Translations under genes and position numbers: made by a program
Assembly (NCBI GenBank): GCA_963669155.1
Contig: OZ022580.1
Location: 21,773,696-21,837,695, forward strand
DNA length: 64,000 nt
Source: Arbacia lixula
Taxonomy: Eukaryota > Echinodermata > Echinoidea > Arbacioida > Arbaciidae
Reading direction: 5' to 3'
Shown here: positions 35,188 through 64,000 of the stretch, in pieces
Layout: each line of letters begins with the position of its first letter
Numbering within the stretch: the stretch's first letter is position 1
The notes under the pieces: model-generated
The model's database searches: none
What the model saw: only the letters and a program-made list of their open reading frames with translations
What the model was told of the DNA's origin: nothing

Positions 35188-35767
35188 CACATAACGTACC
35201 ACATCACTGATCCTAACACTTGCCATCACACATACCACATCACTGGTCACAACACTTGCTACCACACATACCACATCACTGGTCAAAACACTTGCTATTA
35301 CACATACCACATCACTGGTCACAACAATTGCTATACCACATCACTGGTCACAACACTTGCTATTACACATACCACATCACTGGTCACAACACTTGCCATC
35401 ACACATACCACATCACTGGTCACAACACTTGCTATTACACATACCACATCACTGGTCACAACACTTGCTATTACACATATCACATCACTGGTCACAACAC
35501 TTGCTATTACACATACCACATCACTGGTCACAACAATTGCTATTACACATATCACATCACTGGTCACAACACTTGCTATTACACATACCACATCACTGGT
35601 CACAACAATTGCTATTACACATATCACATCACTGGTCACAACAATTGCTATTACACATACCACATCACTGGTCACAACACTTGCTATTACACATACCACA
35701 TCACTGGGTTACAACACTTGCCATCACACATACCACATCACTGGTCTCAACACTGGCCACCACATAT
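35188..35767. repeat. 36-bp minisatellite, about 16 copies
   Basis: The unit is ACACATACCACATCACTGG plus TCACAACACTTGCTATT. As 36 is divisible by three and the unit lacks stops in several frames, long repetitive ORFs arise on both strands; they are not genes. One unit is truncated near 35330. Confidence 0.95.
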
Positions 35768-49200: not shown

Positions 49201-52200
49201 TAGCTATAAAAAAAAAGAAATATTTACATAGCTGGCATATAACTGTAAGATTATCAGGAGAAAGTTTATTTTTTTTAGAAGAAAGTTCAGTAATATTCGG
49301 CGATAATCAGGGTGAAGCACTGCTGCTGGCATGGGACATGCACGGGACTCTCGGTATACAGTGCAGCACGGCCCAAAATGCAGTGTAACTTACACTGTAA
49401 GATTTCTTCCATTCCCGAAACAAACAAACAAAAAACTCAAAAAGTGCAAACTCTGTGTCAAGGCATGTGGAAGAAAAGATTTGATGACAACAGACAAAAT
49501 CACAAAAGACAGCTACATTTGCTCCAAGTATTTTTTTTATAGGAATGGGCCGACATTCACCCCGGTCAACCCCATGTACCCGACCTGCCGCAGTCTCCGC
49601 GAAACCCGTATCGTACCGTGCGGCCAGCTCCTCGAGAGAGAGTACTGTATAAGCTGTTATTTTCGCGTACATATATTTTCGCGAATGGCGGCTTCTGCTA
49701 CATATTCGCGTGTTGTTAAATACGCGCCGGGTCGTGCTCATGCTTAGTAGTCAGTACGTACTACTAGTAGTACATGTGTGTGAGGCATGCGCTGTATGCT
49801 GCTGCATTTGTTCGCCATGCGTGTTAGTACTTAGTATAATCTCGTAATGTTGCAAGTTGATATGAGAATATTTTCGCGCGTTGTTAAATTCGCGTTTGCT
49901 CGTTCATTCGCGAAATTCGCGAAAATAAAACCCTCGCGAAAATAACAGCTTATACAGTATACGGTCATCGGTCTACTTACCAAACGGCAGAAAGTTACCG
50001 AACCATCTATCAGTTTGCTGAACACATACTCCCATTAAAAAACAAGATAATATCATGTAACTGCAACTTCATACAGTATACCTTATTATGAGTGAACCGT
50101 GTAGGTTTTATGTGAAATTATTCCTTTACATAGGTTTACATTTATTTTTTTTTAGAGGATTATCCTTGCATCTTCACGTATCGTCAGCTCCACGCTGTGG
50201 GACGGGACGGCGAGGTCTGGGTCTGAGGCAAGGTGTGCACGCTGCTGCTGCTTTCGCTAGCTGCAAAAGCCCACCCTTCGAATACCCGGTGGTAGAAACA
50301 CCCTTATCCTTCAAAAAATTCTGGAGCTGCTTGACAGTCATGCCGTCAAAAGGTCCTGTTGATGTCGACGACATCACAAAACTCCCTCTTATAAAAATAA
50401 TGCTCTTTCAGGTAATATACGACTGAGAATAAAATGAAAACCTCGGAACTAAAGACCCGCTAGATTTGAACGCGGCGCTATGCAGACAAGATGGCGGATA
50501 GCGAAAGCTTGACTGAGGAAGCAACAGTAGTGTAGTAGTTAGCGACCCCACCCCTCCACAAGCCCCGCCGATAGAGGGCAGCAGGGCTGCATATATAAGC
50601 CCTGCGCCGGGGAGAGGTCGACAGACCGAATCCTGACAGAGACTGAGACAGAACTGATAGTACAAGACAGCTACAAACAAAGGTTGGTTTGTCGTTTTGT
50701 ATTCGTGGTCTGTTTGGTCTCTTGGTCTGACCAAGCGTTTCAGAGTGAACCGCTTCATTGGCGCTTGCGAGCAGAAGCTGTTCGCTGCTTTTGCGGCCTT
50801 TTTATTTAATCGATTTGTGGTGAGACTTTGCAGGTTCGCCGTGAGCTAGGCCTCTCATTGCGCATTAGATGCGTTCCCTGATGCGTGGGGGGAAAGTGCT
50901 CACGGCAGCCGCGTAGTCAAGCCACGTTTTTAGTTTCGGATCACATTAGTGTTTTGTTCGGTAGGGTTGCCTAGTCAGCCTTACCAATCGTAGTCCTAGT
51001 TTATTGCCATCTTTATAATTTTTTGTAGTGCGTGGTGTGTGTGTCCTGAGTCAGGTTCTTTTTAGTAGCCAGATTCGGGGCAATTTTTAGCTCGTTTTCG
51101 TACGGCATTTTTTCGTTTTCGCGTGGGGATATAGTTCCGGCCGCGGGCTGGAAATTTCCACGAGGGAGCGGGGATCGTGCGTAAATCGTTGCACCTACGA
51201 TTGGGTGATTGTGTGTTCGAGCGTGTGTGGCTGATCTGTCGGCTGCGCACTAGTTTAGTCTCGCGTCCGCGGGCTTTTACATCACTCGGTGGTGGGGCCT
51301 GCGCAGTGCGCGGCGCATAGTTGTTTTTCGTGTCGGGGACGGGCGGAGGGATACTTATTATCCTCCCGCAAAAGTTTCCGGCGCCATCTTTGGACCGTGT
51401 CGATCGTGGACCAAACGTTGCACGCGTCTTCGGGACAGCGGTGATCTATCATCTACCCGAGATTGACGGAGCGGTACGGAAAAGTGAGTTTTTGTGCTTT
51501 GATCTCCGTTTTATTTTGGATTTATAGATCTGAATCCGTGAGTTGTATATTTGTGTTCCACTATTGGAACGGATTTTTAGCCAGTTTCGTATTTTCATCT
51601 TATATTTAAGTAAACATTTTGTGTGTGTGTGTGAGTGCATATTTGGGAGTGTCACGTGTGGACCCACCCGTTCGTAGTAGCGGGGAGTCCGTTCAAAAAA
51701 AAAAAAAAAAAAAATAAAAAAAAAAAAAAAAAAATTGTGCGGGTGTGAGGTGATTGTTGAGGTTGATTGTTTTTAGAGTTTGTTGAACTTCACAAATTGT
51801 GAGGTGCGTTTGTTTTTGTATGGCCGGTGAGGGGGAGGATTTTGAAATCCAAATCCAAGGCAAACTTAATTTTTTATTATTTGTCATTGAGGCGTACAAG
51901 GCAGATATCATTACACTGCCGGAGCTTGTACAGCTGTTGGTCGATATTGTTTTCCAAGAGGGAATGCAATACGAATTTTAAGTTTTACCATTTTTGTACA
52001 CCCTATGGTTGGCCATTTGCGCCGACTTGTACAATTTTTGTAAATTTTATAGTTGGCCAGTCGCGCCAAAATTTATAATTTTGGTAAAGTCTATAGGTGG
52101 CCAGCCGCGCGAAGTTTTATAACTTTCGTGCGTTATATAGGTGGCCAGTTACTCCAATACTTATAAATTTTGTTGTGTATAGTCTAGGTTGGTTCCAGAC

Positions 52201-55200
52201 AAGCTTTGTCCAGAACCAGTAGGCCTAGAGCGTAAACTCGAACGATGGATAGGGACACTAAAATCCCTATCAATCTGTGCTCCTTTGAGGAGCTTCATGA
52301 GGTGCCAGGGCTATCCCCAGCCCAGGCAGGGATCCTATTGGGTCTTAGAATTGAGCATGGAAACGTGACTCCCGAGCTCTTTGAGAAGTCTCCCGGACTT
52401 GTAGAGTCCAGGGGGCTACTCGACAAGTTTGATTACACACCCAGGAGTACGTCGGGGCTCCAGGGTCAGAGTGGGGAAGGCCAAGGCGTTTTTTCCACTC
52501 CGATGGGATACCGGGTCCCAAACACTAGCACTCCTAGGGGGGCCCAAGCCCCGCTGGCGGAAGGGTGGGCGCCGCAGGGCGCCTGCACGTACCCGTATGA
52601 TGTATACCCGCCTCCGTCGACACTGGAGACTACACGAAGGTCTCCGGGTCGCACACCAGCGCCCTCGCATGCACAACCTCGAGATGCGTATGGGTTGAGA
52701 GAGTCCTCTCGGATGGGGGACGCCCTCGCCGATAGGCAGGGGCGTCGTGGCCCCACCGTCCGGGATTACTCGCTCAGCTCCTGTGCAGCCAGCGCGAATA
52801 GAGGAAGCGTAAGTGGAGGGCGGGGCCCACAGGCCTCGCTACCACCACCTGATTTCGGGTCAAGAGATATTCGGAATTATCGCGAAAGTCAACCTGGACT
52901 CTTCTCTAGTTCAATCCCGATAGGGCAGGGGGGTGGCAGGTCTATGTACCAGCCTCTCCCCAAGGCCATAGCCTTTGACGGACAGGGGAGCTGGAGAACG
53001 TTCCAACGAAAATTCACGGTCTACGCCGACCAACAAAGGTGGACCTGGGCTGAACGGGTCTATCAGTTGCATTGGGGCATGACTGGGAAGGCTGGAGACT
53101 ACCTCAGCCTGGTTCTTGAACAAGAGCCGGACTTGGGGTATCTCGATATCCTTGAACGAATGGAGCAGCGTTTTGGCGAGGGTGGATTACCTGAATCCGC
53201 CCAGCTGGAATTTGCTTCAGCCAAGCAGGGGCAAGACGAGTCCCTGCCGGAATGGGCTGACCGGATACTACGGTTGGCACTGAGAGCGTTTCCGGGGGTG
53301 GAAGGGCACTACCCACAGCAGCAGGCAGTCCTCCGCCTGTGCCAAGGGTGTGCCAATAGGGAGGCAGGGTGTCACGCACTCACCCAGCATCCCGCCACCA
53401 TTAGGGAGGCTCTCCAGTCAATAGAGTGGCACCAGCATGTCCATCGGGCCATGTATGGTCGTGCCCGCGCTATCAAGCCAGTCGCGATGACTACCGTTGA
53501 GGAGGGAGAGGTCCGTAAGGTCGATCTCTCTCCCCCCGCGTCCACAAGATCTACTGAAGAGGGAAGATATGCTGCCCCGGAGCGTCGCTTAATCGCGTCG
53601 GAGCGCCGATCTTCCGAAACGGAGCGCAAACTAAGCGAACTGGAGCGAAGGACTGGGGAGCGCTTAGACCAATTAGAGCGCGATATGAAAAAAGTTTTGG
53701 AGCTGCTACAGCCCAAGTCTGAAGCTTCCAGGGAACGGCCAAAGTCTCCTGGAGGTGACAGATGCTACGGCTGTGGGGGGTATGGGCACTTCCGCCGACA
53801 ATGCCCAAACCCCAAGGAAAACAGAGCGAAGGTACAGGTTTCCTTTGTTGAAGGTTTGGAGGAGGAAAACTGCAGCGGGTCGGAGGAAGAGGCCAACCTC
53901 CGACCCACATCGCCATAGGGCCACAGCTAGACAGGAACGGTTGCACGTTCCAGGATAGCGTGGATGGGCCGCCCATAGGCCCAACCAAACCAGAGGAAGA
54001 ACCTGGGGTGCATTCATGCATAATTACTCTAGGGGATCCAGTGGTTAAAAGTCTAGCACAGTATGTAGAGGAGATCACGGCTCCTGAAGCTGATATCGGC
54101 ACCTCGGACATCCGGTCATTTGACCGGATAGGGGAGGGTCCAGAAATTATTCCAGACCACCCCCCGGGGGCCGAAAAGGCTGAAGAAGTGGTGGTATGTA
54201 GGTTGGAGTCCGGCTCCACCCTCAATGCTTCCGTGATAGTCGGGGGCCAGCCAGTTAGCGCAGTGGTAGATACGGCCGCGGAGGTATCACTTATCTCGGA
54301 GGAAATGTTTCAACTACTGTGTCCACGCCCGCCCAAGCTGCGAAACGTTATCCTACACGCGGCGGGTAAGGATATGAGGATGAAAGGGACAGTAGTCGGA
54401 CCTATCTCTGTGAAGTTGGGAAACCAAACATATCTCGAGGAGATTTATGTGGCACCGATAGCGGGCCGCATGCTCCTGGGATTGGACTTCCTGAGTAAAC
54501 ACAAGGTAACCATTCATCTTCAAGAGCCACACTTACGAATAGGAGAAGAGACGGTTCCTCTTTGGTTTGAGCACGATCCAGGGCGTCGTGTCGCTCGGGT
54601 TCATGCACGCAAGCGTGTGGTGGTACCACCGAACGCAATCAAGAGGATCACAGGAATTATTGACCAGCGGTTAGGAACAGGTATTTTCGAACCGCAGGTG
54701 GATCTTCCAGTCATGATTCCCAGTTCCATCCACGGGGCAGGGGAAACGGTAGAACTCTATGCCATCAATCCCACGGATAGACACCAGGAAATCACTTGTT
54801 CAGGTGTCTTGGGGGAGGCTGGACAACTGCAAGACATGGAAATCCAGGAACTTAGCTTGGGGGATGCAAGGGTTTCCCAAATTAAAACGGGGGGCTAACT
54901 CCTAGTCTCCACATAGACAAATATTGCCCTCTCTGTGTAGGTAGGGAGAAGTAAGGGCAGAGAATGTGGAATGATTGGGTCTTCTTGGTTAGATACTAAT
55001 TATGTTTTCTTCTTTTCTCTTGTTCTCCTTGCTACAGATGACTGAGTTGAGGGCAGAGGACCTTCCTTTGCCCTCAGATAGTGATGAGGACTGGCTACTC
55101 GGCGGTGAGGAGCCGGGGGCCGTGGAGGGTGGGATGGAGCCGGCGGAGCTGCGTCCCACGGAAGTGGAGGAGGGTGGGGTCGACCGGCCTGACTCTACAC

Positions 55201-58200
55201 TCCCCACTCGAAATCAGGTAATGGGTTTGGGAGGGGCCCCTATGGCTCAACCCAATCCCGCAGAAGACCTGGGAGGAGCTCAAAGTGCGCCTTCCGAGGT
55301 GGTGGTGGAGGAAGGGAACCTTGCGGTTGCCTCACCAGCCCCCGAAGGGGAAACCTGGGCGGGACAGTTGGTGAGGTGGCTAGTGGGGGGACCTTCTCTC
55401 CCCTACCCTAGTTTTGTGGTCCGCTTGGCCCCGTCTGAGCTGCCCTGGGACTTCGTCCTGGCGCACTTGGACATGGTGTACACGCGGGCCGCAGAGTCAT
55501 GTGATGCGGGCTGGGTCAGTTGCCTGCATGAGTACCTCAGGGGACGCCTGTCTCCAGAGGACTATGTCAACAGGTACCCTTTGCTGGGGTCAGAGGAGGG
55601 CGCCGAGGAGGGGGCTGAGGGATTAAGATTCTTCGACCCCCCCACTCCTTGGTGGGAGCCGGGCATGGAGAAAAGTCAGCGTTTTCACCGCAGCCTGGCC
55701 CACCTTTCGCCCTTCTCGTGGCATACTCCAGTGGGGTCCTCAGGATTTGGGGCAAGGCCTCAACCAGAGGTTCAGGGCAATTTGTGCCTCGAACCTGCAC
55801 CAGCTGACTTACATCCAGCTGGGGTTGGGCCAACCTCAAAGGGTCACTCCGAGGCTCCCATGGAGGCAGAGGAGGCTATGGACACGGGGGATTCGTCTCC
55901 TGTGCCTAGCTCCCCTCCTTCGAGCACCCGGGTGACACCGCCTGAGGAGCTGACTCGTTCTCAGCTTCCCCAGGCCGAAGTGGGAGCCACTCGGGCAGGT
56001 GTCACATCCCGCCCGGGTAAGCGACCAGGGGGAGGGTCCGTAGATGGGCCTTCCCGCAAACGCAAGGCGAGGGGCATGTGTCCCCTTTGCCAAGCTAGGC
56101 CGGCGGGAAAGTTGAGGACGCATGTCTATCGACACATGCCGCCAGCGTTGCGCTTGTGCCAGGGCAAGGATGCCCCTGAGAAATTGCCGCTTCTCGGGGT
56201 CAAAGGATGCCTCAGGTTCATGTCGCAAGCGCTGACTGGGTCAACTGAACTGGAGAGCCTCATGCGGTTTGTGGACAGTGGGGCACCTGAGGACTGGGAT
56301 TGGTCTATCCCGGACGTCATGGAGGAGGATATGATTCGCCTCCATGAAGGTCTGCGGATTCCGGTCCCTCCTCAACTGTCCGTCCGGCCCATGAGCTCTT
56401 TCGTGGTGCTGCTGCACTGGAGGGTGTTAGCCTGGCTCGTGCCTCAACTGAGCACTGAGCAGAGGGACAGGCTGCACTTTCTGGGAGGGTCTCGCCCAAG
56501 GCAGACCACAGCAACCACCACAGGAGTTGAGTCAACTCAGGCAGGTGGCGACACGCCATCCGCACCGAGCGTGGCACCATCATCTGATGGAGGTGGGAAT
56601 ACTGTTCCCGCCGCTGCTGCTTCGGCTGCGGGGGCGGCCCCGCCTCCTGCGGCGGCTGGAGCTTCTGCTCCGGTTGCAGGGTCCTCCACAAAGGGTTCGG
56701 GTGTATCGTATGCCCGGGCCACATCTAAGCCACCTGTCCCCTTAGCTTTCGATAGCCATTTCCATTTGGATAGGCTAGAGGCGAAGACAGGAAAGGCGGG
56801 GCTTGGGTGTGTGGAGACTCTGGCCGGCAGGGAACCGCGGGTTCCGGTGCGACTCTGCGGGGGCGTGGTCAATTACTGCGACCCCAAAGGACACCGGAAC
56901 ATCAAGTTCCCTGCGGACCGGAAGTGGAAGGTGTCGGTGGGGGTGCACCCCAAGCATGCCCCCACCTTCGATGAAGTGGATCTGGACGTTATGGGCAAGC
57001 TTGCCTGTGACGCCAGAGTTTGTGCCATAGGGGAAGTGGGGCTCGACTACTCCGTTCCCCCTAAGGCCTGGCCGAGGCAGCTGAGCGTCTACAAGACGAT
57101 TCTTGAGAAGCTTGGTGCGTCCGGCCAGGTCTTGGTCCTTCATCTCCGGGGTGAGCAGGGAGCCCCGGATTCTGACAAGCCCTCTCGCGTCTGCAGGGAG
57201 GCAACTGTCGGAAGGGTCAATAAGCACCAGCGGATTCACATCCACTCGTGCACATTGAGCCCTTCTGAGGCCAAGGCGTGGGGGAAAGCATTCCCAAACG
57301 CCTACTTCGGCTTTAATGCCTTGGTCCGGTCGTTTTCGAAGGCCCAGTTGTCCGCCCTGCGGGCGATCCCTCCGAGTCGGGTTCTGTTAGAGACCGACTC
57401 CCCTCATCTGCCCTTAGGTGGGGGCATCACTCACATGACCCCTGCTTATATAGGGGAGGTGGGACTGCTTGTCGCCAAGGCACGGCAAGAACAGTTCCAC
57501 CCCTTCATGGAGAGAGTTAGGGCAAATGCCCTGACGCTCTATGGAGCCTAAAAGCAGGGGCATAGGGTACGGTGGGAAATTGTTTTCCGCCGGCCACCGA
57601 GAAGTGGGTATCATGTAAAGATCCTACTTCTTTTTCTGTCCATCTGAAGGTGGAATCCATCAGGGATTCCACTTTCTTAAATTCTATCGGTAGGTGGGAT
57701 TCATTTAGGATTCTATCTTTCCAAATTCCTCATTTCCATTGGTAGGAGGAAACCATTTGGGATTCCACCTTTTCGGTTCCAATGGTATGTAACGGGTCTC
57801 AAAATGGCCTGCTCCGTTTAATGGCGACGCTGGCGCCTCCTGGCCTACGCCTGAGTTACCTAGGTGGGCTTCCATTATGTGGATCCCACCGATAGTACCC
57901 GAGTAATGAACATCTCGCACTGGTAAGATGGCGTCCTAGCCCGGGCAGGATAAGCGGATAGCTCACCGCCATGGGAGCAAGGAGGATTTTGGGCAAAAGG
58001 GGTAGGGGGGACCCATAGGGAAAATACTTTTTTTTTTCTTCTTATTGGGGACCTTGTTTTTTAAAACGGGGGGGAGTGTAGTAGTTAGCGACCCCACCCC
58101 TCCACAAGCCCCGCCGATAGAGGGCAGCAGGGCTGCATATATAAGCCCTGCGCCGGGGAGAGGTCGACAGACCGAATCCTGACAGAGACTGAGACAGAAC

Positions 58201-60646
58201 TGATAGTACAAGACAGCTACAAACAAAGGTTGGTTTGTCGTTTTGTATTCGTGGTCTGTTTGGTCTCTTGGTCTGACCAAGCGTTTCAGAGTGAACCGCT
58301 TCAGTAGTATGAATTATGTCCTTTTGCATACATTAGGAAAACAGTTTATTGTAGAATCTTGTCGAAAGTCATTTATTCTTGTCTGCAGATAATGAACATT
58401 TAAAATTTGCAAAAACATAATATCTAGTTTTTTTCCGTAGCTTTCTTGTTTATTGTTACAGTGTGCAACTACTGAACTAGAGTCTACATGATAGTTACGT
58501 ACGTGGACAAGATGTCATCGTGGACTGCAGCGATGGCTTTGCGAACACTAAGCTTCGTATCGGCTGTCGCCTTGCCGAGCTGGCAAGTGTCGGTGCGCAG
58601 GTCATCGACAGTTTGAATTGTCTTTCCGTAGTATTCTTTCACATCCTCGTGAACTGAATCTGCTGTCGTCGTCATGTTGCAACAATTGAACAGCTTTTCC
58701 AATGTCATGAACAGCAGGCTACTAGCTCCAAATTAAGCGTGCCTAGCCTGGTCCTTGCTGTTAATGTTCGCGTTTATACTGAATAGCATACGTAGTAAGG
58801 CGGCGATTTGCGTGCTGATACATGTATGAGCCTACTGTGAGTGTGCACTGCACTGATGCACGAGACAAAAGTGTGCGCTCTTCTGAACTATTGCATTTTT
58901 AATGTATCACATTCTTCTGAGCTATTGCATTTTTATCCGCTTTAAAAATGCAATGGCTCAGAAGAAATTTACAGAAAAGTATACAAATACACAATACAGA
59001 AAATTCAGAAAATGTAACAGAAGTGTAAGCGTATTAAAGGTGATATTCATAGAAAATCATATTCATCTACAGAAAGCTTATAAGCCATATAATGAGCTTG
59101 GATGACATTGAAACAATACATCACTTCCGAAAAAGCGAAATTAGGGTGAAAACAGTCACCCTATTCTCTGGGATAAAATTGCCATACTGTCGTCCGAAAC
59201 GGCCTTTAGGTTTGACCAGGGATGTGTTATGGAAGGATATGAAACAACTTTCTTTCTTTGAACCCATGCGTGGTACCGCCGAAGAAAAAAATGTCTTCTC
59301 AGCATGTGCTTTTTAGGTGTTTTAACAATAACGAACAGGATTGCGTAGCAACGGTTTCTCAGATAGAATAAACGAAATGTAGAGTCTTATTTCGCTTGTC
59401 CAGTTCTGTTGGATTGAATCAATACCTTTGTGAGGAAAAGAGATATCAGCGAACAAAAATAAAGGTGTTTTTTTTCTTCTAAAATATCTCAGTTGTACGC
59501 AAATGCACGCAAACTCTGTAAATGGAAATAAACAGCCTAAGATATAATTTTGATAATGATTGAATCCCACATTTTCGGAAATTGAAGAAATTTGTTAATT
59601 GTGTAAGTAAAAAATATTATCTTATATCTCCGTTTGTGCATCATTCAACAATTATTTAAAAGAAAACCGAGTACAGGATCTCTAGTGGTGTTGCCCGTAA
59701 CTTTCTTGAAAATTGCACAAAAATGTGATAAGAAACATGCGGCTTCCAGAGACAAAACAGTGAATTAAAGATATTGCTTTCCAAGTTCACAGCAGCTAAA
59801 TGTCGGTGCCGTGCATGGGACATCAAAGCATTGCAGTGATTGTGGAATGCTTTTGACATTCATTAACACGCTTTAGTATCCATACAGATGTTTGAATATA
59901 CATGTATTATGCTCGACTTGCTTCTCCTTCCTATAGGCATCCCTGGTTTGGCGTAAGAAAAGGGAGGCGTTATTGTGCATCACACATGCCAATCCGCAGC
60001 TTCTTTTCCGCCAGAAGCATCATGCAATTATTAATGAAACTGTGATGGCAGTTGCTAGTGGATTAACAGGTGTGATACACAATGGTCATTGTGAACATTT
60101 GTGTGTAGATTGCCGCTCTATAGCTGCGTGAAGCATAATCCCAGCTGTGACGTACATACAAAGCCTGGCGATTTCGTAGGTCAGGAGAGAGTAATTTAGT
60201 GAAATTTTCATAAGACACAAATCTGAACACTTTTATGGCAAGTTAGCTGCATAAATTGCGTTAATAACTCATGCAATCATAAATGAACTATATTTATTTG
60301 ATTTTATTTCCTATGAAGTATCACCTTTAAAGAGAATGATAATAACTAGTATAGAGAAAATGCAGATGGAATTGAACCTGACAGTTTCCTCACAAAATGA
60401 CATTTCCCTCATAAAATGTAAAGAAATGTGCAACTACATGATTTATTAATAATACATGATTTATGTTACGTACGTGGACAAGATGTCATCGTGGACTGCG
60501 GCGATGGCTTTGCGAACACTAGGCTTAGCATCCGCCATTTCAGTGTCGAGCTGGCAAGTGTCGGTGCGCAGGTCATCAACAGTACGAATCGTCTTTCCGT
60601 AATATTCTTTTACATCCCCATAAACTAAATCTGCTGTCGACGGCAT
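37191..60646 (-). CDS. AS3MT: Arsenite methyltransferase (8 coding exons, two alternative first exons)
   Basis: SAM-dependent enzyme of the AS3MT family that methylates trivalent arsenic in the cytosol. Coding exons in transcript order: 60474-60646 (1a) or 58503-58675 (1b), 47404-47554, 45710-45846, 45283-45434, 44390-44521, 39501-39643, 38189-38296, 37191-37274. They total 1080 nt, 359 residues plus stop, close to the vertebrate enzyme (about 375), with every junction in phase. Cys31 (TDTCQ), Cys62 (YYGCGL), Cys157 (SNCVINL) and Cys207 (WGECL) match the four cysteines known to handle arsenic. The SAM motif I is [12 protein letters not shown] (76-87), followed by [10 protein letters not shown]. 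The C-terminus is cysteine-rich (SCGTAQQCC). Intron 1 holds a 7.8-kb LTR element in antisense orientation. Confidence 0.92.
38189..38296 (-). CDS. AS3MT: AS3MT exon 7
   Basis: Acceptor CACAG, donor GTAAGC. It encodes [28 protein letters not shown] and SAVDSAEE, matching the family's VDEETAAILKxSRF segment. Phase 0 at both ends. Confidence 0.9.
39011..39474. mobile_element. MITE with CCCATTTACACT termini
   Basis: GGCCCATTTACACT at the left and AGTGTAAATGGGGC at the right are inverted repeats. The interior is packed with ATCGCGATCTT / AAAAATCATGATTTTT palindromes. The target duplication is not clear. It lies between AS3MT exons 6 and 7. Confidence 0.65.
39501..39643 (-). CDS. AS3MT: AS3MT exon 6
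   Basis: Acceptor ATGCAG, donor GTATGT. It encodes [38 protein letters not shown] and KEHTFK. The residue aligned with human Cys250 (GDC) is Ile251. Confidence 0.92.
39889..40726 (-). mobile_element. Helitron-like repeat, minus copy with 65-bp minisatellite
   Basis: Reverse orientation copy of the element at 13053-14594. CTAG and hairpin CGACTGC/CAGTC sit at about 39889-39915, then shared non-repeat sequence, then about nine to ten units of the same 65-bp minisatellite (40143-40726). Confidence 0.65.
41112..43055 (+). mobile_element. 5'-truncated non-LTR retrotransposon (CR1/L2-like)
   Basis: Starts inside the reverse-transcriptase palm, contains the C-terminal domain and a 3' UTR, and ends with an (AATAAA/AAAT)n tail at about 43013-43055. 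It interrupts a Helitron-like element: sequence GGATTCAATGTGAAA at left resumes as ATATCGAGATTTGG at right. Confidence 0.85.
41116..42129 (+). pseudogene. LINE ORF2 fragment: C-terminal reverse transcriptase
   Basis: 337 codons without a stop. [22 protein letters not shown] is RT block 4, MYADDT at about residue 60 is the catalytic YxDD box, and KYLGIWLD and [16 protein letters not shown] are typical of the CR1/L2/Jockey-group C-terminus. The endonuclease and the first half of the RT are missing, so it is dead on arrival. The frame is undamaged, which suggests recent insertion. Confidence 0.88.
44390..44521 (-). CDS. AS3MT: AS3MT exon 5 (Cys207)
   Basis: Acceptor TTTGCAG, donor GTAGGG. It encodes [20 protein letters not shown] and [20 protein letters not shown]. 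Cys207 corresponds to human Cys206. Human Cys226 is Thr here (GFTPPR). Confidence 0.93.
44804..44985. mobile_element. 182-bp MITE, Tc1/mariner-like
   Basis: Perfect 17-bp terminal inverted repeats (TACAGTGAAACCTGTCT at 44804, complement ending at 44985) including a TA at each end. The interior repeats CTGTCTATAGCAGCCA four or five times in both orientations. Confidence 0.8.
45283..45434 (-). CDS. AS3MT: AS3MT exon 4 (Cys157)
   Basis: Acceptor TTTGCAG, donor GTGTGT. It encodes [31 protein letters not shown] and HKVLWG. Cys157 corresponds to human Cys156. Confidence 0.93.
45710..45846 (-). CDS. AS3MT: AS3MT exon 3
   Basis: Acceptor GACAG and donor GTAAGT on the minus strand. It encodes [32 protein letters not shown] and EDDHYDVVV, aligning with the family's helix after motif I and the motif II strand. 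Confidence 0.93.
46268..46477 (+). pseudogene. Non-LTR retrotransposon C-terminal relic
   Basis: [40 protein letters not shown] and APGYI match the conserved CR1/L2-type C-terminal pattern (TPILxxLHWLPxxxRIxFKxxxLxYKxLxGxAPxYI). No RT block upstream; a short remnant. Confidence 0.7.
46671..47100. repeat. Tandem duplication (about 250-bp spacing)
   Basis: The block from TACTAGCAGCAGTCTT through AAAGTCGCCC, GAATGTTCCTCAAGCCAGCC to TTGATTTGTGACTT occurs at 46671-46860 and again at 46922-47095 with few changes. Short simple repeats (CTATCAAG)n lie between. Confidence 0.8.
47404..47554 (-). CDS. AS3MT: AS3MT exon 2 (SAM motif I)
   Basis: On the minus strand the acceptor TTTCAG is followed by [36 protein letters not shown] and [11 protein letters not shown]; donor GTAAGC. 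It contains the arsenic-binding Cys62 and the glycine-rich SAM loop. Confidence 0.95.
48294..48873. mobile_element. 580-bp MITE, PIF/Harbinger-like (TTA target duplication)
   Basis: TTA at 48291-48293 and 48874-48876 flank TATGCTTTTCACACTGGC and its reverse complement (about 27-bp TIRs). The interior is built from many direct and inverted copies of TTAGCCCCGTACTAT, including an arm pair at 48785-48845. No transposase. Confidence 0.8.
49430..49590 (+). pseudogene. Degenerate THAP-like zinc-finger fragment
   Basis: In-frame [20 protein letters not shown], then [16 protein letters not shown] and NPMYPT. This resembles a THAP-type C2CH finger as found N-terminal to DDE_Tnp_4 transposases, where the last pair is CxxH followed by GPTxxNPxP. 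Here the His position is Tyr (CSKY), so the finger is probably broken. Family assignment is tentative. Confidence 0.45.
49643..49959. mobile_element. 317-bp MITE with perfect 25-bp inverted ends
   Basis: TACTGTATAAGCTGTTATTT at the left continues to TTCGCG; 49935-49959 is its exact reverse complement. TA borders both sides. The interior is rich in TTCGCG / CGCGAA. Confidence 0.85.
50174..50377 (-). CDS. Small ORF with SAP-like motif (68 codons), status uncertain
   Basis: [20 protein letters not shown] continues [20 protein letters not shown]. The [25 protein letters not shown] pattern fits a SAP helix-extension-helix (DNA-binding) motif near residues 12-42, followed by a basic Arg/Pro tail. 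It sits in AS3MT intron 1 in the sense direction, next to the LTR element and a THAP-like relic. Probably a transposon-derived exon or fragment rather than a stand-alone gene. Confidence 0.4.
   Translation of the reverse strand: MMSSTSTGPFDGMTVKQLQNFLKDKGVSTTGYSKGGLLQLAKAAAACTPCLRPRPRRPVPQRGADDT
50531..50757 (+). repeat. 5' LTR (227 bp)
   Basis: Starts TGTAGTAGTTAGCGACC and ends GAACCGCTTCA. It contains ATATATAAG (50591-50599), a likely TATA box, between inverted arms GCAGGGCT and AGCCCTGC. Confidence 0.95.
50591..50599 (+). promoter_or_regulatory. LTR TATA box
   Basis: ATATATAAG inside the 5' LTR, about 160 bp before its end; duplicated in the 3' LTR near 58137-58145. Confidence 0.65.
50759..50776 (+). 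promoter_or_regulatory. Candidate primer binding site
   Basis: TGGCGCTTGCGAGCAGAA begins one base after the LTR. TGG is expected because tRNAs end in CCA. I could not match it to a specific tRNA. Confidence 0.5.
51484..51489 (+). promoter_or_regulatory. Candidate 5' splice site in retroelement leader
   Basis: AAA|GTGAGT is the best donor-like sequence I saw between the PBS and gag. It could pair with the acceptor at 55037 to make a subgenomic mRNA for the TatD ORF. Inference only. Confidence 0.35.
51820..51981 (+). CDS. Leader small ORF (53 codons) of the LTR element
   Basis: ATG at 51820 opens [20 protein letters not shown] and ends QEGMQYEF. Acidic start, then an amphipathic Leu/Ile/Val-rich segment. 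No family recognised. It lies upstream of gag in the leader, so it could be a uORF affecting gag translation, or chance. Confidence 0.35.
   Translation: MAGEGEDFEIQIQGKLNFLLFVIEAYKADIITLPELVQLLVDIVFQEGMQYEF
51990..52190 (+). repeat. Leader tandem repeats (about 50-bp unit, 4 copies)
   Basis: Four degenerate units share TATRGKTGGCCAGYCGCGC flanked by T-rich and ATTTATAA-like stretches (GTTGGCCATTTGCGCC, GTTGGCCAGTCGCGCC, GTGGCCAGCCGCGCG, GTGGCCAGTTACTCC). They lie just before the gag start. Confidence 0.75.
52245..53918 (+). CDS. gag: Retroelement Gag with zinc knuckle (557 aa)
   Basis: Structural nucleocapsid protein of the LTR element. Residues 1-230 are Pro/Ser/Arg/Gly-rich and disordered. 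About 240-380 form the capsid-like retrotransposon gag domain ([58 protein letters not shown]). About 445-490 are a heptad-like Glu/Arg coiled coil ([17 protein letters not shown]). Cys507 opens a CCHC knuckle, [14 protein letters not shown] (C-x2-C-x4-H-x4-C). The Glu-rich C-terminus overlaps the protease frame. The ATG at 52245 is the first in frame after the leader repeats. The gag domain suggests a Ty3/Gypsy-type lineage. Confidence 0.92.
   Translation: MDRDTKIPINLCSFEELHEVPGLSPAQAGILLGLRIEHGNVTPELFEKSPGLVESRGLLDKFDYTPRSTSGLQGQSGEGQGVFSTPMGYRVPNTSTPRGAQAPLAEGWAPQGACTYPYDVYPPPSTLETTRRSPGRTPAPSHAQPRDAYGLRESSRMGDALADRQGRRGPTVRDYSLSSCAASANRGSVSGGRGPQASLPPPDFGSRDIRNYRESQPGLFSSSIPIGQGGGRSMYQPLPKAIAFDGQGSWRTFQRKFTVYADQQRWTWAERVYQLHWGMTGKAGDYLSLVLEQEPDLGYLDILERMEQRFGEGGLPESAQLEFASAKQGQDESLPEWADRILRLALRAFPGVEGHYPQQQAVLRLCQGCANREAGCHALTQHPATIREALQSIEWHQHVHRAMYGRARAIKPVAMTTVEEGEVRKVDLSPPASTRSTEEGRYAAPERRLIASERRSSETERKLSELERRTGERLDQLERDMKKVLELLQPKSEASRERPKSPGGDRCYGCGGYGHFRRQCPNPKENRAKVQVSFVEGLEEENCSGSEEEANLRPTSP
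53852..54898 (+). CDS. pro: Retropepsin (aspartic protease) in the -1 frame after gag
   Basis: The frame is open from 53852, overlapping gag by 67 nt, and has no ATG near its start, so it is expected to be made as a Gag-Pro fusion by -1 frameshifting. After an acidic spacer, [20 protein letters not shown] holds the catalytic triplet DTA (Asp codon at 54269-54271). [17 protein letters not shown] is the retropepsin hydrophobic-hydrophobic-G-x-D strand. Its active form is normally a homodimer that processes Gag. The remaining C-terminal part ends at TAA 54896-54898 without any RT sequence, where Gypsy elements would continue into pol. Confidence 0.88.
   Translation, partial: RFGGGKLQRVGGRGQPPTHIAIGPQLDRNGCTFQDSVDGPPIGPTKPEEEPGVHSCIITLGDPVVKSLAQYVEEITAPEADIGTSDIRSFDRIGEGPEIIPDHPPGAEKAEEVVVCRLESGSTLNASVIVGGQPVSAVVDTAAEVSLISEEMFQLLCPRPPKLRNVILHAAGKDMRMKGTVVGPISVKLGNQTYLEEIYVAPIAGRMLLGLDFLSKHKVTIHLQEPHLRIGEETVPLWFEHDPGRRVARVHARKRVVVPPNAIKRITGIIDQRLGTGIFEPQVDLPVMIPSSIHGAGETVELYAINPTDRHQEITCSGVLGEAGQLQDMEIQELSLGDARVSQIKTGG
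54994..55037 (+). promoter_or_regulatory. Branch point, polypyrimidine tract and 3' splice site before TatD ORF
   Basis: TACTAAT (54994-55000) resembles a branch point. A T/C-rich tract (TTTTCTTCTTTTCTCTTG) then leads to CTACAG ending at 55037, directly followed by ATG at 55038. Confidence 0.65.
55038..57551 (+). CDS. TatD-family metallo-hydrolase ORF of the LTR element
   Basis: 837 residues from the ATG that follows the splice acceptor (the frame is open from 55002). Numbering from 55038: 1-340 acidic, Pro/Gly/Ser-rich; about 348-366 a C2H2-like finger CPLC..H..H (C-x2-C-x10-H-x3-H); about 380-470 an unidentified helical domain; 520-560 Ala/Pro-rich linker; 570-837 TatD domain. All expected TatD metal ligands are visible: FDSHFH (His574, His576), [10 protein letters not shown] (Glu666), VLVLHLRGE (His702), IHIHSC (His736) and [10 protein letters not shown] (Asp787). 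TatD proteins are Mg-dependent DNases/3'-5' exonucleases. Vertebrate TATDN2-like proteins are the nearest type I can name. The position corresponds to env in retroviruses. Confidence 0.88.
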   Translation: MTELRAEDLPLPSDSDEDWLLGGEEPGAVEGGMEPAELRPTEVEEGGVDRPDSTLPTRNQVMGLGGAPMAQPNPAEDLGGAQSAPSEVVVEEGNLAVASPAPEGETWAGQLVRWLVGGPSLPYPSFVVRLAPSELPWDFVLAHLDMVYTRAAESCDAGWVSCLHEYLRGRLSPEDYVNRYPLLGSEEGAEEGAEGLRFFDPPTPWWEPGMEKSQRFHRSLAHLSPFSWHTPVGSSGFGARPQPEVQGNLCLEPAPADLHPAGVGPTSKGHSEAPMEAEEAMDTGDSSPVPSSPPSSTRVTPPEELTRSQLPQAEVGATRAGVTSRPGKRPGGGSVDGPSRKRKARGMCPLCQARPAGKLRTHVYRHMPPALRLCQGKDAPEKLPLLGVKGCLRFMSQALTGSTELESLMRFVDSGAPEDWDWSIPDVMEEDMIRLHEGLRIPVPPQLSVRPMSSFVVLLHWRVLAWLVPQLSTEQRDRLHFLGGSRPRQTTATTTGVESTQAGGDTPSAPSVAPSSDGGGNTVPAAAASAAGAAPPPAAAGASAPVAGSSTKGSGVSYARATSKPPVPLAFDSHFHLDRLEAKTGKAGLGCVETLAGREPRVPVRLCGGVVNYCDPKGHRNIKFPADRKWKVSVGVHPKHAPTFDEVDLDVMGKLACDARVCAIGEVGLDYSVPPKAWPRQLSVYKTILEKLGASGQVLVLHLRGEQGAPDSDKPSRVCREATVGRVNKHQRIHIHSCTLSPSEAKAWGKAFPNAYFGFNALVRSFSKAQLSALRAIPPSRVLLETDSPHLPLGGGITHMTPAYIGEVGLLVAKARQEQFHPFMERVRANALTLYGA
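57605..57780 (+). repeat. Series of hairpins upstream of the 3' LTR
   Basis: GTGGAATCC/GGATTCCAC (57650-57672) is a perfect 9-bp stem with a 5-base loop. Diverged versions follow (GTGGGATTC..GGATTCTATC, GAGGAAACC..GGGATTCCACC), and GAAGTGGGTATC/GATCCTACTTC precedes it. Confidence 0.75.
58063..58076 (+). promoter_or_regulatory. Polypurine tract
   Basis: AAAACGGGGGGGAG lies immediately before the TG of the 3' LTR, as expected for the plus-strand primer. Confidence 0.8.
58077..58303 (+). repeat. 3' LTR (227 bp)
   Basis: Same length and, read base by base, same sequence as 50531-50757. Confidence 0.95.
58503..58675 (-). CDS. AS3MT: AS3MT alternative first coding exon 1b
   Basis: Starts [20 protein letters not shown]; an in-frame upstream ATG at 58706-58708 would add 11 residues ([11 protein letters not shown]). 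It carries the same GTACGT donor as 1a and differs at about a dozen of 57 residues, mostly positions 2-10 and 34-42. It is 200 bp from the LTR element. Confidence 0.85.
58676..60473 (-). other. Region between AS3MT exons 1b and 1a
   Basis: Contains the presumed 1b promoter with its hairpin. No other exon recognised; short ORFs lack recognisable domains. Confidence 0.45.
58912..58966. promoter_or_regulatory. Long hairpin upstream of AS3MT exon 1b
   Basis: The 24-base arm TTCTTCTGAGCTATTGCATT(TTTA) pairs with 58943-58966 with one mismatch. A partial extra copy of the arm (TTCTGAACTATTGCATTTTT) begins at 58881. It lies about 240 bp upstream of the exon 1b ATG. Confidence 0.7.
60474..60646 (-). 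CDS. AS3MT: AS3MT alternative first coding exon 1a
   Basis: Starts [20 protein letters not shown] and ends AVHDDILST with the Thr codon split; the donor on the minus strand is GTACGT, slightly weak. Exactly 173 nt, the same as exon 1b, and either joins the exon at 47554 in frame to give STYYGCGL. A TATATA-type sequence lies just upstream of the ATG. Confidence 0.85.
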
Positions 60647-62984: not shown

Positions 62985-63087
62985 ATAGTAGTAGTTGCAG
63001 CAGCAGCAGCAGCAACAGCAGCATCAGCAGTAGCAGTAGTAGTAGTACTACTACTAGTAGTAGTAGTAGTAGTAGCAGCAGTAGTAC

Positions 63088-63142
<55 letters not shown>

Positions 63143-63237
63143 TGCAGCAGCAGCAGCAGCAACAGCAGCATCAGCAGTAGCAGTAGTAGTAGTACTACTA
63201 CTAGTAGTAGTAGTTGTAGTAGCAGCAGTAGTACTAC

Positions 63238-63268
<31 letters not shown>

Positions 63269-63355
63269 TGCAGTAGTAGCAGTAGTAGTAGTAGTAGTAG
63301 TAGTAGTAGCAGTAGTAGTAGTAGTAGCAGTAGTAGTAGTAGTAGTAGTAGTAGC

Positions 63356-63387
<32 letters not shown>

Positions 63388-63388
63388 C

Positions 63389-63432
<44 letters not shown>

Positions 63433-63510
63433 CAGTAGTAGTAGTAGTAGTAGTAGTAGTAGCAGTAGTAGTAGTAGTAGTAGTATAGGAGTAGTAGTAG
63501 TAGTAGTAGC

Positions 63511-63555
<45 letters not shown>

Positions 63556-63647
63556 TGCAGCAGCAGCAGCAGCAACAGCATCATCAGCAGTAGCAGTAGT
63601 AGTAGTACTACTACTAGTAGTAGTAGTAGTAGTAGCAGCAGTAGTAC

Positions 63648-63689
<42 letters not shown>

Positions 63690-63690
63690 C

Positions 63691-63722
<32 letters not shown>

Positions 63723-63768
63723 CAGTAGTAGTAGTAGTAGCAGTAGTAGTAGTAGTAGTAGTAGTAGC

Positions 63769-63803
<35 letters not shown>

Positions 63804-63804
63804 C

Positions 63805-63836
<32 letters not shown>

Positions 63837-63867
63837 CAGTAGTAGTAGTAGTAGTAGTAGTAGTAGC

Positions 63868-63922
<55 letters not shown>

Positions 63923-64000
63923 TAGGAGTAGTAGTAGTAGTGGCAGTAGTAGCAGTGGTAGTAGTAGCAGTAGTAGAAGTAGTAGTAGTAGAAGTAGTAG
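62985..64000. repeat. (AGT)n array with higher-order structure, runs off the window
   Basis: More than 1 kb of AGT triplets with scattered AGC. A complex block AGTTGCAGCAGCAGCAGCAG followed by CAACAGCAGCATCAGCAG and TACTACTACTAG occurs at about 62992, 63140 and 63554. TATAGGAG interrupts at 63483 and 63920. Poly-Ser, poly-Val and poly-Leu ORFs here are artefacts. Confidence 0.97.

What the first reader, a model, noticed from the sequence alone, without database searches (positions are those of the whole stretch)
50531..58303. LTR retroelement that carries a TatD-family nuclease-like gene and no polymerase or integrase
Seen: identical-looking 227-bp LTRs, gag, retropepsin, polypurine tract and a large ORF with all TatD metal ligands, with no RT, RNase H or integrase anywhere between the LTRs. 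Known: non-autonomous LTR elements usually lose coding capacity rather than keep gag-pro and add a metallo-nuclease. Inference: the TatD protein may process cDNA or target DNA, counter a host defence, or replace env. The identity of the LTRs and intact frames argue for very recent, presumably functional, mobilisation.
Basis: partly seen in the sequence, partly recalled or inferred. Interest (0 to 1): 0.88.

Follow-up and report, generated by a model that had tools for sequence, protein, structure and literature searches.

The report
Pol-deleted retrotransposon retaining TatD gene
A recently moved, polymerase-less copy of a sea-urchin-type LTR retrotransposon has led to whole families of such elements that carry a DNA-cutting (TatD-type) enzyme gene where retroviruses carry their envelope gene.

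Summary
Window 50531-58303 is an LTR element with identical 227-bp LTRs, a 4-bp target duplication, gag, protease, PPT and a large ORF ending in a complete TatD domain (Pfam E 3.6e-25). No RT, RNase H or integrase was found inside. TatD was not added to a gag-pro skeleton: the element is an internal-deletion derivative of a gag-pro-RT-RH-IN(PHD)-TatD, Ty3/gypsy-type element. A pol-bearing copy on C12 has a 96% identical LTR, the same PBS and a near-identical PPT, and 23 codons of its PHD finger remain in the window. The deletion joins two G-runs; its junction occurs at three genomic places, so the deleted form was mobilised, presumably in trans. A second family has one fully read copy with open gag, pol and TatD frames. 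Pol lies directly upstream of TatD at 12 places. Related proteins occur in sea urchins, bivalves and Lingula, with metal ligands invariant in 30 of 30 aligned rows. A splice-acceptor-like site abuts the ORF3 start. The nuclease's role is inferred. Enzymatic ORF3s are known in rotifer LTR elements (DEDDy, GDSL); my paper searches listed none with TatD.

The parts
50527..50530 (.). target site duplication GTAG (left)
   Evidence: flank comparison
50531..50757 (+). 5' LTR, 227 bp, TG...CA
50759..50776 (+). primer binding site-like TGGCGCTTGCGAGCAGAA
   Evidence: position after the LTR; the same in the pol-bearing copy L035/L036; tRNA match not tested
51481..51492 (+). splice-donor-like site (AAAAGTGAGT) in the 5' leader, the only match of the donor pattern scanned between LTR and gag
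   Evidence: pattern scan; inference only
52245..53918 (+). gag ORF, 557 aa; N-terminal HhH-like, PNMA/capsid-like, CCHC
   Evidence: weak Pfam hits, below cut-offs; 27% identity over 83 aa to the gag part of P0066
53852..54898 (+). protease frame, -1 relative to gag, overlapping the gag end
   Evidence: PF13975 E 1.1e-9; frame and range
54890..54905 (+). junction of the pol deletion (G-run of the pro/RT boundary joined to the GGGG of the PHD-finger region)
   Evidence: comparison with L036; the same junction in 3 places genome-wide
54892..54951 (+). remnant (23 codons) of the integrase-linked PHD finger
   Evidence: tblastn
54987..55037 (+). 3' splice-acceptor-like region: TACTAAT branch-like motif, polypyrimidine tract, CAG
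55038..57551 (+). ORF3, 837 aa from the ATG after the acceptor (the listed ORF starts at 55002, 849 aa)
55338..55592 (+). ORF3 N-terminal helical domain (residues 101-185)
   Evidence: AlphaFold2 model, pLDDT 76-93 in blocks from 101 to 180
56070..56492 (+). ORF3 C2H2 zinc-finger plus helical domain (residues 345-485)
   Evidence: C348 C351 H362 H366 invariant in 30 of 30 aligned rows; pLDDT blocks mostly 89-97, dipping to 63-77 between and at the ends
56706..57548 (+). TatD metallo-nuclease domain (residues 557-837); ligands H574 H576 E666 H702 H736 D787
58063..58076 (+). polypurine tract AAAACGGGGGGGAG
58077..58303 (+). 3' LTR, identical to the 5' LTR
58304..58307 (.). target site duplication GTAG (right)

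Best explanation
The window holds a young non-autonomous copy of a Ty3/gypsy-type LTR retrotransposon whose normal gene order is gag, protease-RT-RNase H-integrase(-PHD finger), ORF3. ORF3 is a zinc-finger protein with a C-terminal TatD-type metallo-nuclease, and it sits in the env position. SHOWN by sequence: one deletion between two short G-runs removed RT to the middle of the PHD finger and left gag, protease and ORF3. The deleted form stands at three separate sites. Other pol deletions arose at other junctions, and some of them also kept TatD. INFERRED: RT and integrase come in trans from pol-bearing relatives with matching LTR, PBS and PPT. INFERRED: ORF3 is made from a spliced subgenomic mRNA using the acceptor at 55037. 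INFERRED, least certain (about 0.5 on its own): ORF3 is a nucleic-acid-processing accessory. Its zinc finger and basic stretch would bring the nuclease to element RNA/cDNA, where a class II TatD (TATDN2/3- and YcfH-like) trims 3' ends or nicks abasic or hybrid structures during or after reverse transcription. Confidence 0.8 is for the deletion-derivative and third-ORF account as a whole.
For: Pol-bearing copy: L035/L036 (C12:802367-817561) has gag, pro-RT, RNase H, integrase H2C2/rve, PHD (E 1.5e-9) and an 852-codon ORF3 frame, with an identical 223-bp LTR pair, 96% identical to the window LTR. It has one in-frame stop in RT and a 4.3-kb insert in its leader. Deletion: junction compared; pattern found in exactly 3 places; the pol-retaining pro/RT boundary found in 4. 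Mobility: 6 of 6 LTR pairs measured have 0 mismatches and each has its own 4-bp duplication. Other pol deletions: L034 (different junction, GGTTAG at the join, gag and ORF3 open) and L033 (TatD fused in frame behind the integrase H2C2 domain, 1324-aa frame). Generality: pol directly upstream of TatD on the same strand in 12 places, and in a 13th (C5:25153326) upstream of the ORF3 N-terminal part only; L133 of family B has gag 813, pol 1394 and ORF3 580 aa frames, all open. Elsewhere: P0066 (no species name; 99% identical in TatD to Lingula P0044) joins gag, CCHC, protease, an integrase part (54% over 122 aa) and TatD; P0067 joins the PHD finger to ORF3. Selection: NG86 omega 0.12-0.39 in the comparisons that gave a value; six metal ligands invariant in 30 of 30 rows. 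Fold: best PDB matches are TatD nucleases. Acceptor: AG within 0-2 nt of the ORF3 ATG in 9 of the 9 loci where it could be placed, out of 10 tried.
Against: No RNA data: splicing, expression and trans-mobilisation are inferred. No enzyme data: TatD activity is inferred from ligands and fold. L031, 1 of 3 same-junction copies, has a frame break in TatD, and the three copies are too young to show selection after the deletion. Six LTR pairs of more distant copies have 1-3 mismatches, so not every related copy is as fresh. A sibling pol family with a PHD finger (64% pol identity; 4 places) has no TatD match listed nearby, so TatD is not essential to every relative. In family B and L135 the pyrimidine tract is weaker (0.68, 0.64). 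P0066 has no RT or RNase H and may be a fused gene model. For the bivalve proteins only the protein was seen, not its surroundings. A strict motif scan fitted all five ligand patterns in only 37 of 66 sequences; 29 miss at least one pattern.
Confidence: 0.8

Rival explanations
1. TatD is a counter-defence: an AP-endonuclease/3' exonuclease that repairs or edits cDNA damaged by host cytidine deaminases and uracil excision, as dUTPase does for some retroviruses.
For: TatD enzymes of both classes cut AP sites in dsDNA and trim 3' ends (PMC10085689, abstract and passages). AID/APOBEC-like deaminases are reported in Strongylocentrotus purpuratus and Lingula anatina (PMC5956068, abstract and passages), two of the animals whose ORF3-TatD proteins were found.
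Against: The overlap of taxa is a coincidence of two broad lists and was not tested for correlation. No C-to-T signature was measured. TATDN2 could not be assayed in PMC10085689 (solubility).
Confidence: 0.15
2. The pol-less form is a retrocopy of a spliced subgenomic RNA, that is, the 'deletion' is an intron.
For: A convincing acceptor precedes ORF3.
Against: The junction is not at that acceptor. It joins G-runs inside the pro/RT boundary and the PHD finger, leaves the acceptor and 23 PHD codons in place, and the upstream side reads GGGGGAATGA with no GT. The other deletions seen (L033, L034, L041, L044) have yet other junctions.
Confidence: 0.03
3. ORF3 replaces env and mediates entry or exit of particles.
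For: It occupies the env position after pol, with an acceptor before it.
Against: The highest 19-residue Kyte-Doolittle mean in the window ORF3 is 1.28 (1.65 in L135, inside its TatD domain), and the TatD active site is complete.
Confidence: 0.03
4. TatD is a passively captured host gene without function in the element.
For: One same-junction copy is broken; a sibling family lacks it.
Against: ORF3-TatD proteins occur in several element families here and in named proteins of three animal phyla, with purifying selection and invariant ligands.
Confidence: 0.05
5. The arrangement is an assembly artefact (collapsed or misjoined repeat).
For: LTR pairs are perfectly identical.
Against: Same structure at three sites with different flanks and different 4-bp duplications; copies differ from each other by a few bases.
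Confidence: 0.02

Closest known systems
Bdelloid rotifer LTR retrotransposons with enzymatic ORF3 (Juno, Vesta; DEDDy exonuclease or GDSL esterase), PMC5408684 (passages read)
   Same: gag, pol and an enzyme in the env position without transmembrane domains; the nuclease is of the RNA/ssDNA 3'-end type; that paper also names a non-autonomous family (TelKA2n) that lacks the end of gag and most of pol but keeps its env-like third ORF.
   Different: The enzyme here is a TatD metallo-hydrolase fused to a zinc-finger module; hosts are sea urchins, bivalves and brachiopods; the pol-less form keeps whole gag and protease.
TatD nucleases (TATDN1-3, E. coli TatD/YcfH/YjjV)
   Same: Pfam PF01026 over its full length, HxH class II motif, TIM-barrel fold; best PDB matches are TatD enzymes.
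   Different: Encoded by a retrotransposon, with about 550 extra N-terminal residues including a C2H2 zinc finger; forms its own branch apart from the bacterial and host TatD rows used.
Cer1 (C. elegans LTR element) with CERV, PMC10309623 (passages read)
   Same: Protein in the env position, made from a spliced mRNA, not an envelope.
   Different: CERV is an RNA-export factor, not a nuclease; splicing is shown there and only inferred here.
Non-autonomous LTR elements mobilised in trans (LARD/TRIM-type; recalled)
   Same: Identical LTRs, no pol, several copies.
   Different: Keeps intact gag, protease and ORF3 instead of losing coding capacity.
QatD of the Qat anti-phage system
   Same: TatD domain in a conflict setting; weak NCBIfam match (38.2 bits against a cut-off of 230).
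   Different: Bacterial defence system; score far below cut-off, so no membership claimed.

Membership tests
Ty3/gypsy (Metaviridae) LTR retrotransposons | pol order protease-RT-RNase H-integrase | tested here: met
   met in L036 by Pfam (in two pieces either side of a stop) and read by eye in L133; pol itself is deleted from the window copy
Ty3/gypsy (Metaviridae) LTR retrotransposons | TG...CA LTRs, PBS after the 5' LTR, PPT before the 3' LTR, 4-5 bp target duplication | tested here: met
   the tRNA behind the PBS was not identified (searches unanswered)
Ty3/gypsy (Metaviridae) LTR retrotransposons | RT falls in the Ty3/gypsy clade of a reference tree | not tested
   no reference RT set was at hand
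TatD nuclease family | PF01026 over cut-off, full length | tested here: met
   89.2 bits against a cut-off of 27, positions 1-253 of 253
TatD nuclease family | complete metal ligand set HxH, E, H, H, D | tested here: met
   H574 H576 E666 H702 H736 D787 invariant in 30 of 30 rows
TatD nuclease family | TatD TIM-barrel fold | tested here: met
   pLDDT blocks 75 then 89-98 over the domain; the first 17 PDB chains are TatD-family structures, 3e2v and 3gg7 among them not so titled but also matched by sequence
TatD nuclease family | nuclease activity | not testable with these tools
   -
[quoted passage not shown]
   L036 with LTR pair; L133 has the ORF after pol but its LTRs were not found in the 9.5 kb read
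LTR elements with an enzymatic ORF3 (bdelloid type) | DEDDy or GDSL enzyme | tested here: not met
   the Pfam scan shows TatD only
Non-autonomous LTR element | no pol, yet several independent insertions | tested here: met
   3 places with the same junction and separate duplications
env-bearing retroelement | transmembrane glycoprotein in the third ORF | tested here: not met
   no 19-residue window above 1.28 Kyte-Doolittle in the window ORF3

The most novel reading that the evidence does not exclude
An old animal-wide lineage of Ty3-type elements carries its own DNA-repair-type nuclease as a counter-measure: ORF3-TatD removes abasic, deaminated or hybrid structures made in cDNA by host AID/APOBEC-like enzymes. 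Selection for it would be strong enough that pol-less derivatives keep gag plus TatD while borrowing RT and integrase.
Probability: 0.12. Interest if true: 0.85.

Novelty: new variant of a known kind. Interest (0 to 1): 0.62.

Why it matters
It shows a TatD nuclease as a long-kept third gene of LTR retrotransposons in a sea-urchin-type genome, with related proteins in brachiopods and bivalves, beside the DEDDy and GDSL ORF3s of rotifers. Capture of nucleic-acid enzymes in the env position thus looks recurrent. It offers a natural test of what such a gene does, because families with and without TatD and with and without pol lie side by side in one genome. It also warns annotators: some 'TATDN2-like' or 'TatD family hydrolase' genes in marine invertebrates and in MAGs associated with them may be retrotransposon ORFs.

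Tried and rejected
Spliced-retrocopy origin of the pol-less form: rejected, since the junction is not at splice sites. Env: rejected on hydrophobicity. Bacterial capture: not supported. In the tree (54 rows) all 17 bacterial rows (17 of the 80 loci were used) form one group (100/100), and 31 of 36 rows labelled retro form another (100/99). Five labelled retro fall outside it: P0050, P0056, P0058, P0061, P0063. P0056 (Acanthaster) groups with the exon-split host gene at C1:45327253-45329464, so it is probably a host gene that I mislabelled. The root and the donor of TatD are unresolved. The name TATDN2-like for that host gene is recalled, not tested.

Scans of viral contigs (2 loci, 28-30% identity, not read further) and genome contigs (80 loci kept of 375 confirmed, 24-33% identity, all with bacterial titles) gave only distant TatD relatives. 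Third protein search with the zinc-finger part: 2 hits among 89 candidates, both with TatD, so no TatD-free zinc-finger relative was found. RT clade and PBS tRNA were not settled. LTRs of family B were not found in L133. Viral fold library: one hit below 1e-3, a Yasminevirus protein.

Paper searches for this element type. None listed a paper whose title or abstract start speaks of a TatD-bearing retrotransposon. Of the papers that these searches listed I opened four, by passages only: PMC3286476, PMC6962438, PMC5408684, PMC10309623. Only open-access PMC text is held. Searches looked for enzyme and deaminase background; from these I saw passages of PMC10085689 and PMC5956068 and the outline with abstract of PMC12709183.
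Full report
1. What is there. Window 50531-58303 is an LTR element on the + strand. The LTRs are 227 bp, TG...CA, with 0 differences, flanked by GTAG on both sides. Inside are a leader with a PBS-like start, gag (52245-53918), a protease frame in -1 relation to gag (53852-54898; PF13975 E 1.1e-9), and ORF3, whose C-terminal third is a complete TatD domain (E 3.6e-25, profile 1-253 of 253), then a PPT and the 3' LTR. Four pol queries from three relatives matched nothing in the element beyond the protease and 23 codons of a PHD finger.

2. Where it came from. The genome that holds the window (607 Mb, 590 contigs) was searched with the LTR: 38 matches. The nearest ORF3 relatives in the protein database are sea urchins (Lytechinus 60-61%, Diadema 50-55%, Strongylocentrotus 49% and 39% over the TatD part), so the host is probably a sea urchin; this is inferred. 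One copy, C12:802367-817561 (L035/L036), still has pol between protease and ORF3: RT, RNase H, integrase H2C2 and rve, and a C-terminal PHD finger. It has an in-frame stop in RT and a 4.3-kb insert in its leader. Its LTR is 96% identical to the window's, its PBS the same, its PPT different at one of 14 bases. The window copy lacks the stretch from just after protease to the middle of the PHD finger. The ends of the deletion are a G-run at the pro/RT boundary and GGGG in the PHD finger region. The exact junction occurs at 3 places (C5 window, C16, C19), each with an identical LTR pair and its own 4-bp duplication. In all, 6 of 6 LTR pairs measured are identical; six pairs of more distant copies (L040, L041, L042, L043/44, L047, L050) have 1-3 mismatches over the best aligned stretch. 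The three same-junction copies differ by 0-5 substitutions per segment, but L032 carries a different LTR variant (223 bp), which suggests mixing of LTRs between co-packaged RNAs (inference). ORF3 is open in two of the three and frame-broken in L031.

3. Other losses. L034 has a different pol deletion, ending at a GGTTAG shared by both sides, and keeps gag and ORF3 open. L033 has lost the integrase core and the ORF3 N-terminus, and its TatD is fused in frame behind the integrase H2C2 domain in a 1324-aa frame. L041 and L044 keep much of pol, with breaks, but only the later part of TatD. L040 and L047, about 70-87% identical over matched segments, keep only about 180 bp of TatD. So deletion, probably during reverse transcription, is frequent here, and TatD is kept in some products and lost in others. 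The recent copies give no proof of selection after pol loss.

4. TatD is the third gene of pol-bearing elements. From the two position tables (ORF3 search, 63 matches, 53 of 86 candidates scored; pol search, 83 matches, 52 of 1218 candidates scored), pol lies directly upstream of TatD on the same strand in 12 places: C12:811623, C17:21232061, C18:15024172, C10:1184460, C17:16688547, C10:16297088, C15:6956038, C15:19638808, C9:11415123, C16:6670484, C7:15804970, C12:12935147. In a 13th, C5:25153326, only the N-terminal 297 residues of ORF3 were matched after pol. Both lists are capped, so these are lower bounds. Family B, read in one copy (L133), has open gag (813), pol (1394) and ORF3 (580) frames; a repeat search of those 9.5 kb did not show its LTRs. 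Of the seven places that I group as family B by score and frame length, five have pol frames of 1392-1394 aa without stops, C16 is shorter, and C7 has a stop. Four places of a sibling pol with a PHD finger (64% identity) have no TatD match listed nearby; in the one I read (L134) no sense ORF of 150 aa or more follows pol within 2.3 kb.

5. Beyond this genome. Sixty-five proteins matched the TatD part; those with names come from sea urchins, Pinctada, Saccostrea, Pecten, Lingula, Acanthaster, Littorina and MAGs, and most have no name. In 30 aligned rows (window plus 29 of the 65) the six metal ligands and the four zinc-finger ligands are invariant. A strict motif scan of all 66 sequences fitted all five ligand patterns in 37 and a zinc-finger pattern in 61. 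P0066 (1810 aa, no species name; TatD 99% identical to Lingula P0044) carries gag, CCHC, protease, an integrase part 54% identical over 122 aa, and ORF3-TatD in one predicted protein, without RT or RNase H. P0067 (no species name) carries the PHD finger and ORF3 in one frame. The linkage of element genes and TatD is therefore not confined to this genome. For the bivalve proteins the surroundings were not seen.

6. How ORF3 may be expressed. Upstream of codon 13 of the listed ORF lies TACTAAT, a pyrimidine tract and CAG, then ATG (55038). An AG lies 0-2 nt before the ORF3 ATG in 9 of the 9 loci where the start could be placed (10 tried; L141 not placed), although the tract is weak in L133 and L135. 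In the window at large, AG|ATG with a comparable tract occurs at 3 of 1436 + strand ATGs (this one included) and 0 of 1378 - strand ATGs. One donor-like site lies in the leader at 51481. Splicing is inferred.

7. What ORF3 is. The model (837 aa, 30 rows, mean pLDDT 69, pTM 0.44) has three ordered parts: a helical domain 101-185, a zinc-finger/helical domain 345-485 and the TatD barrel 557-837; 330 residues are below 50. Foldseek's first 17 PDB chains are TatD-family structures (3e2v and 3gg7 are not so titled but also match by sequence). The HxH motif puts it with class II (TATDN2/TATDN3, YcfH, YjjV) as defined in PMC10085689 (passages), where TATDN1, TATDN3 and the three E. coli paralogs cut AP sites, the two human enzymes also trimmed 3' ends, and TATDN2 could not be assayed. 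PMC12709183 (abstract) ties tatdn2 to R-loop removal in fish germ cells. NG86 omega: 0.39 and 0.35 against close copies L036 and L034 (39 and 37 changes in all), 0.26 against L138, 0.21-0.32 against L139 pieces, 0.12-0.37 against L141 pieces. Comparisons with family B were saturated and gave no value.

8. Mechanism. I commit to an accessory nuclease made from a spliced RNA that acts on the element's own RNA/cDNA, with pol supplied in trans for the deleted copies. Shown: gene order, deletion, several insertions, conservation. Inferred: splicing, trans supply, substrate. The deaminase counter-defence reading rests on enzyme chemistry and on two shared host taxa (PMC5956068, abstract and passages) and is a lead only.

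9. Known or new. Enzymes in ORF3 of LTR elements, including a nuclease, and a pol-poor family that keeps its third ORF, were reported in bdelloid rotifers (PMC5408684, passages). None of the papers listed by searches speaks in its title or abstract start of TatD in such a place, within the open-access library only. I file it as a new variant of a known kind. Surprise lies in the nuclease type, the breadth of hosts and the layered deletion derivatives.

Noticed in passing
window 41116-42129 (+): Open frame of 337 aa with an RVT_1 match (E 6.1e-17), not part of this element; looks like the end of a non-LTR retrotransposon.
   Followed up: no
window 13132-14240 and 40155-40726: Tandem arrays of a 65-bp unit; the second array's unit reads as the reverse complement of the first.
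   Followed up: no
window 2405-3115, 4860-5375, 35197-35754, 63029-64000: Further tandem arrays with units of 44, 10, 36 and 3 bp; the last runs to the window end.
   Followed up: no
L042 (C7:27561198-27566989): Element sharing the first 98 bp of the LTR and the leader, but with different ORFs; one reads like an RRM (my reading, no profile search), so the same LTR/leader may carry other cargo.
   Followed up: partly
L136 (C5:1667000-1671900): 1383-aa frame with two zinc-finger/helical modules, a repeated middle and one TatD domain.
   Followed up: partly
L137 (C2:5464800-5469000): Three TatD copies in tandem in a repeated unit of about 1.4 kb.
   Followed up: no
C9:1247511-1255863: Row of TatD fragments, the last three about 2 kb apart.
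   Followed up: no
C506:12125-12868: Strongest TatD match in the assembly (257 bits); probably a bacterial contaminant contig.
   Followed up: no
P0012-P0014, P0017, P0059: 'TatD family hydrolase' in Sedimenticola MAGs matches retroelement ORF3s (2 of the 5, P0012 and P0013, were in the tree and fall among them); the MAG contigs may hold animal host DNA (inference).
   Followed up: partly
PMC6962438 (one passage): A 'TATDN2' gene in the giant squid Hox cluster, beside transposon-like genes, may be such an ORF3.
   Followed up: no
L133 gag-pro overlap, about 2770-2780: GGGAAAC, a typical -1 slippery heptamer (recalled), in the gag/pro overlap; the window has GGAAAAC in its gag/pro overlap.
   Followed up: no
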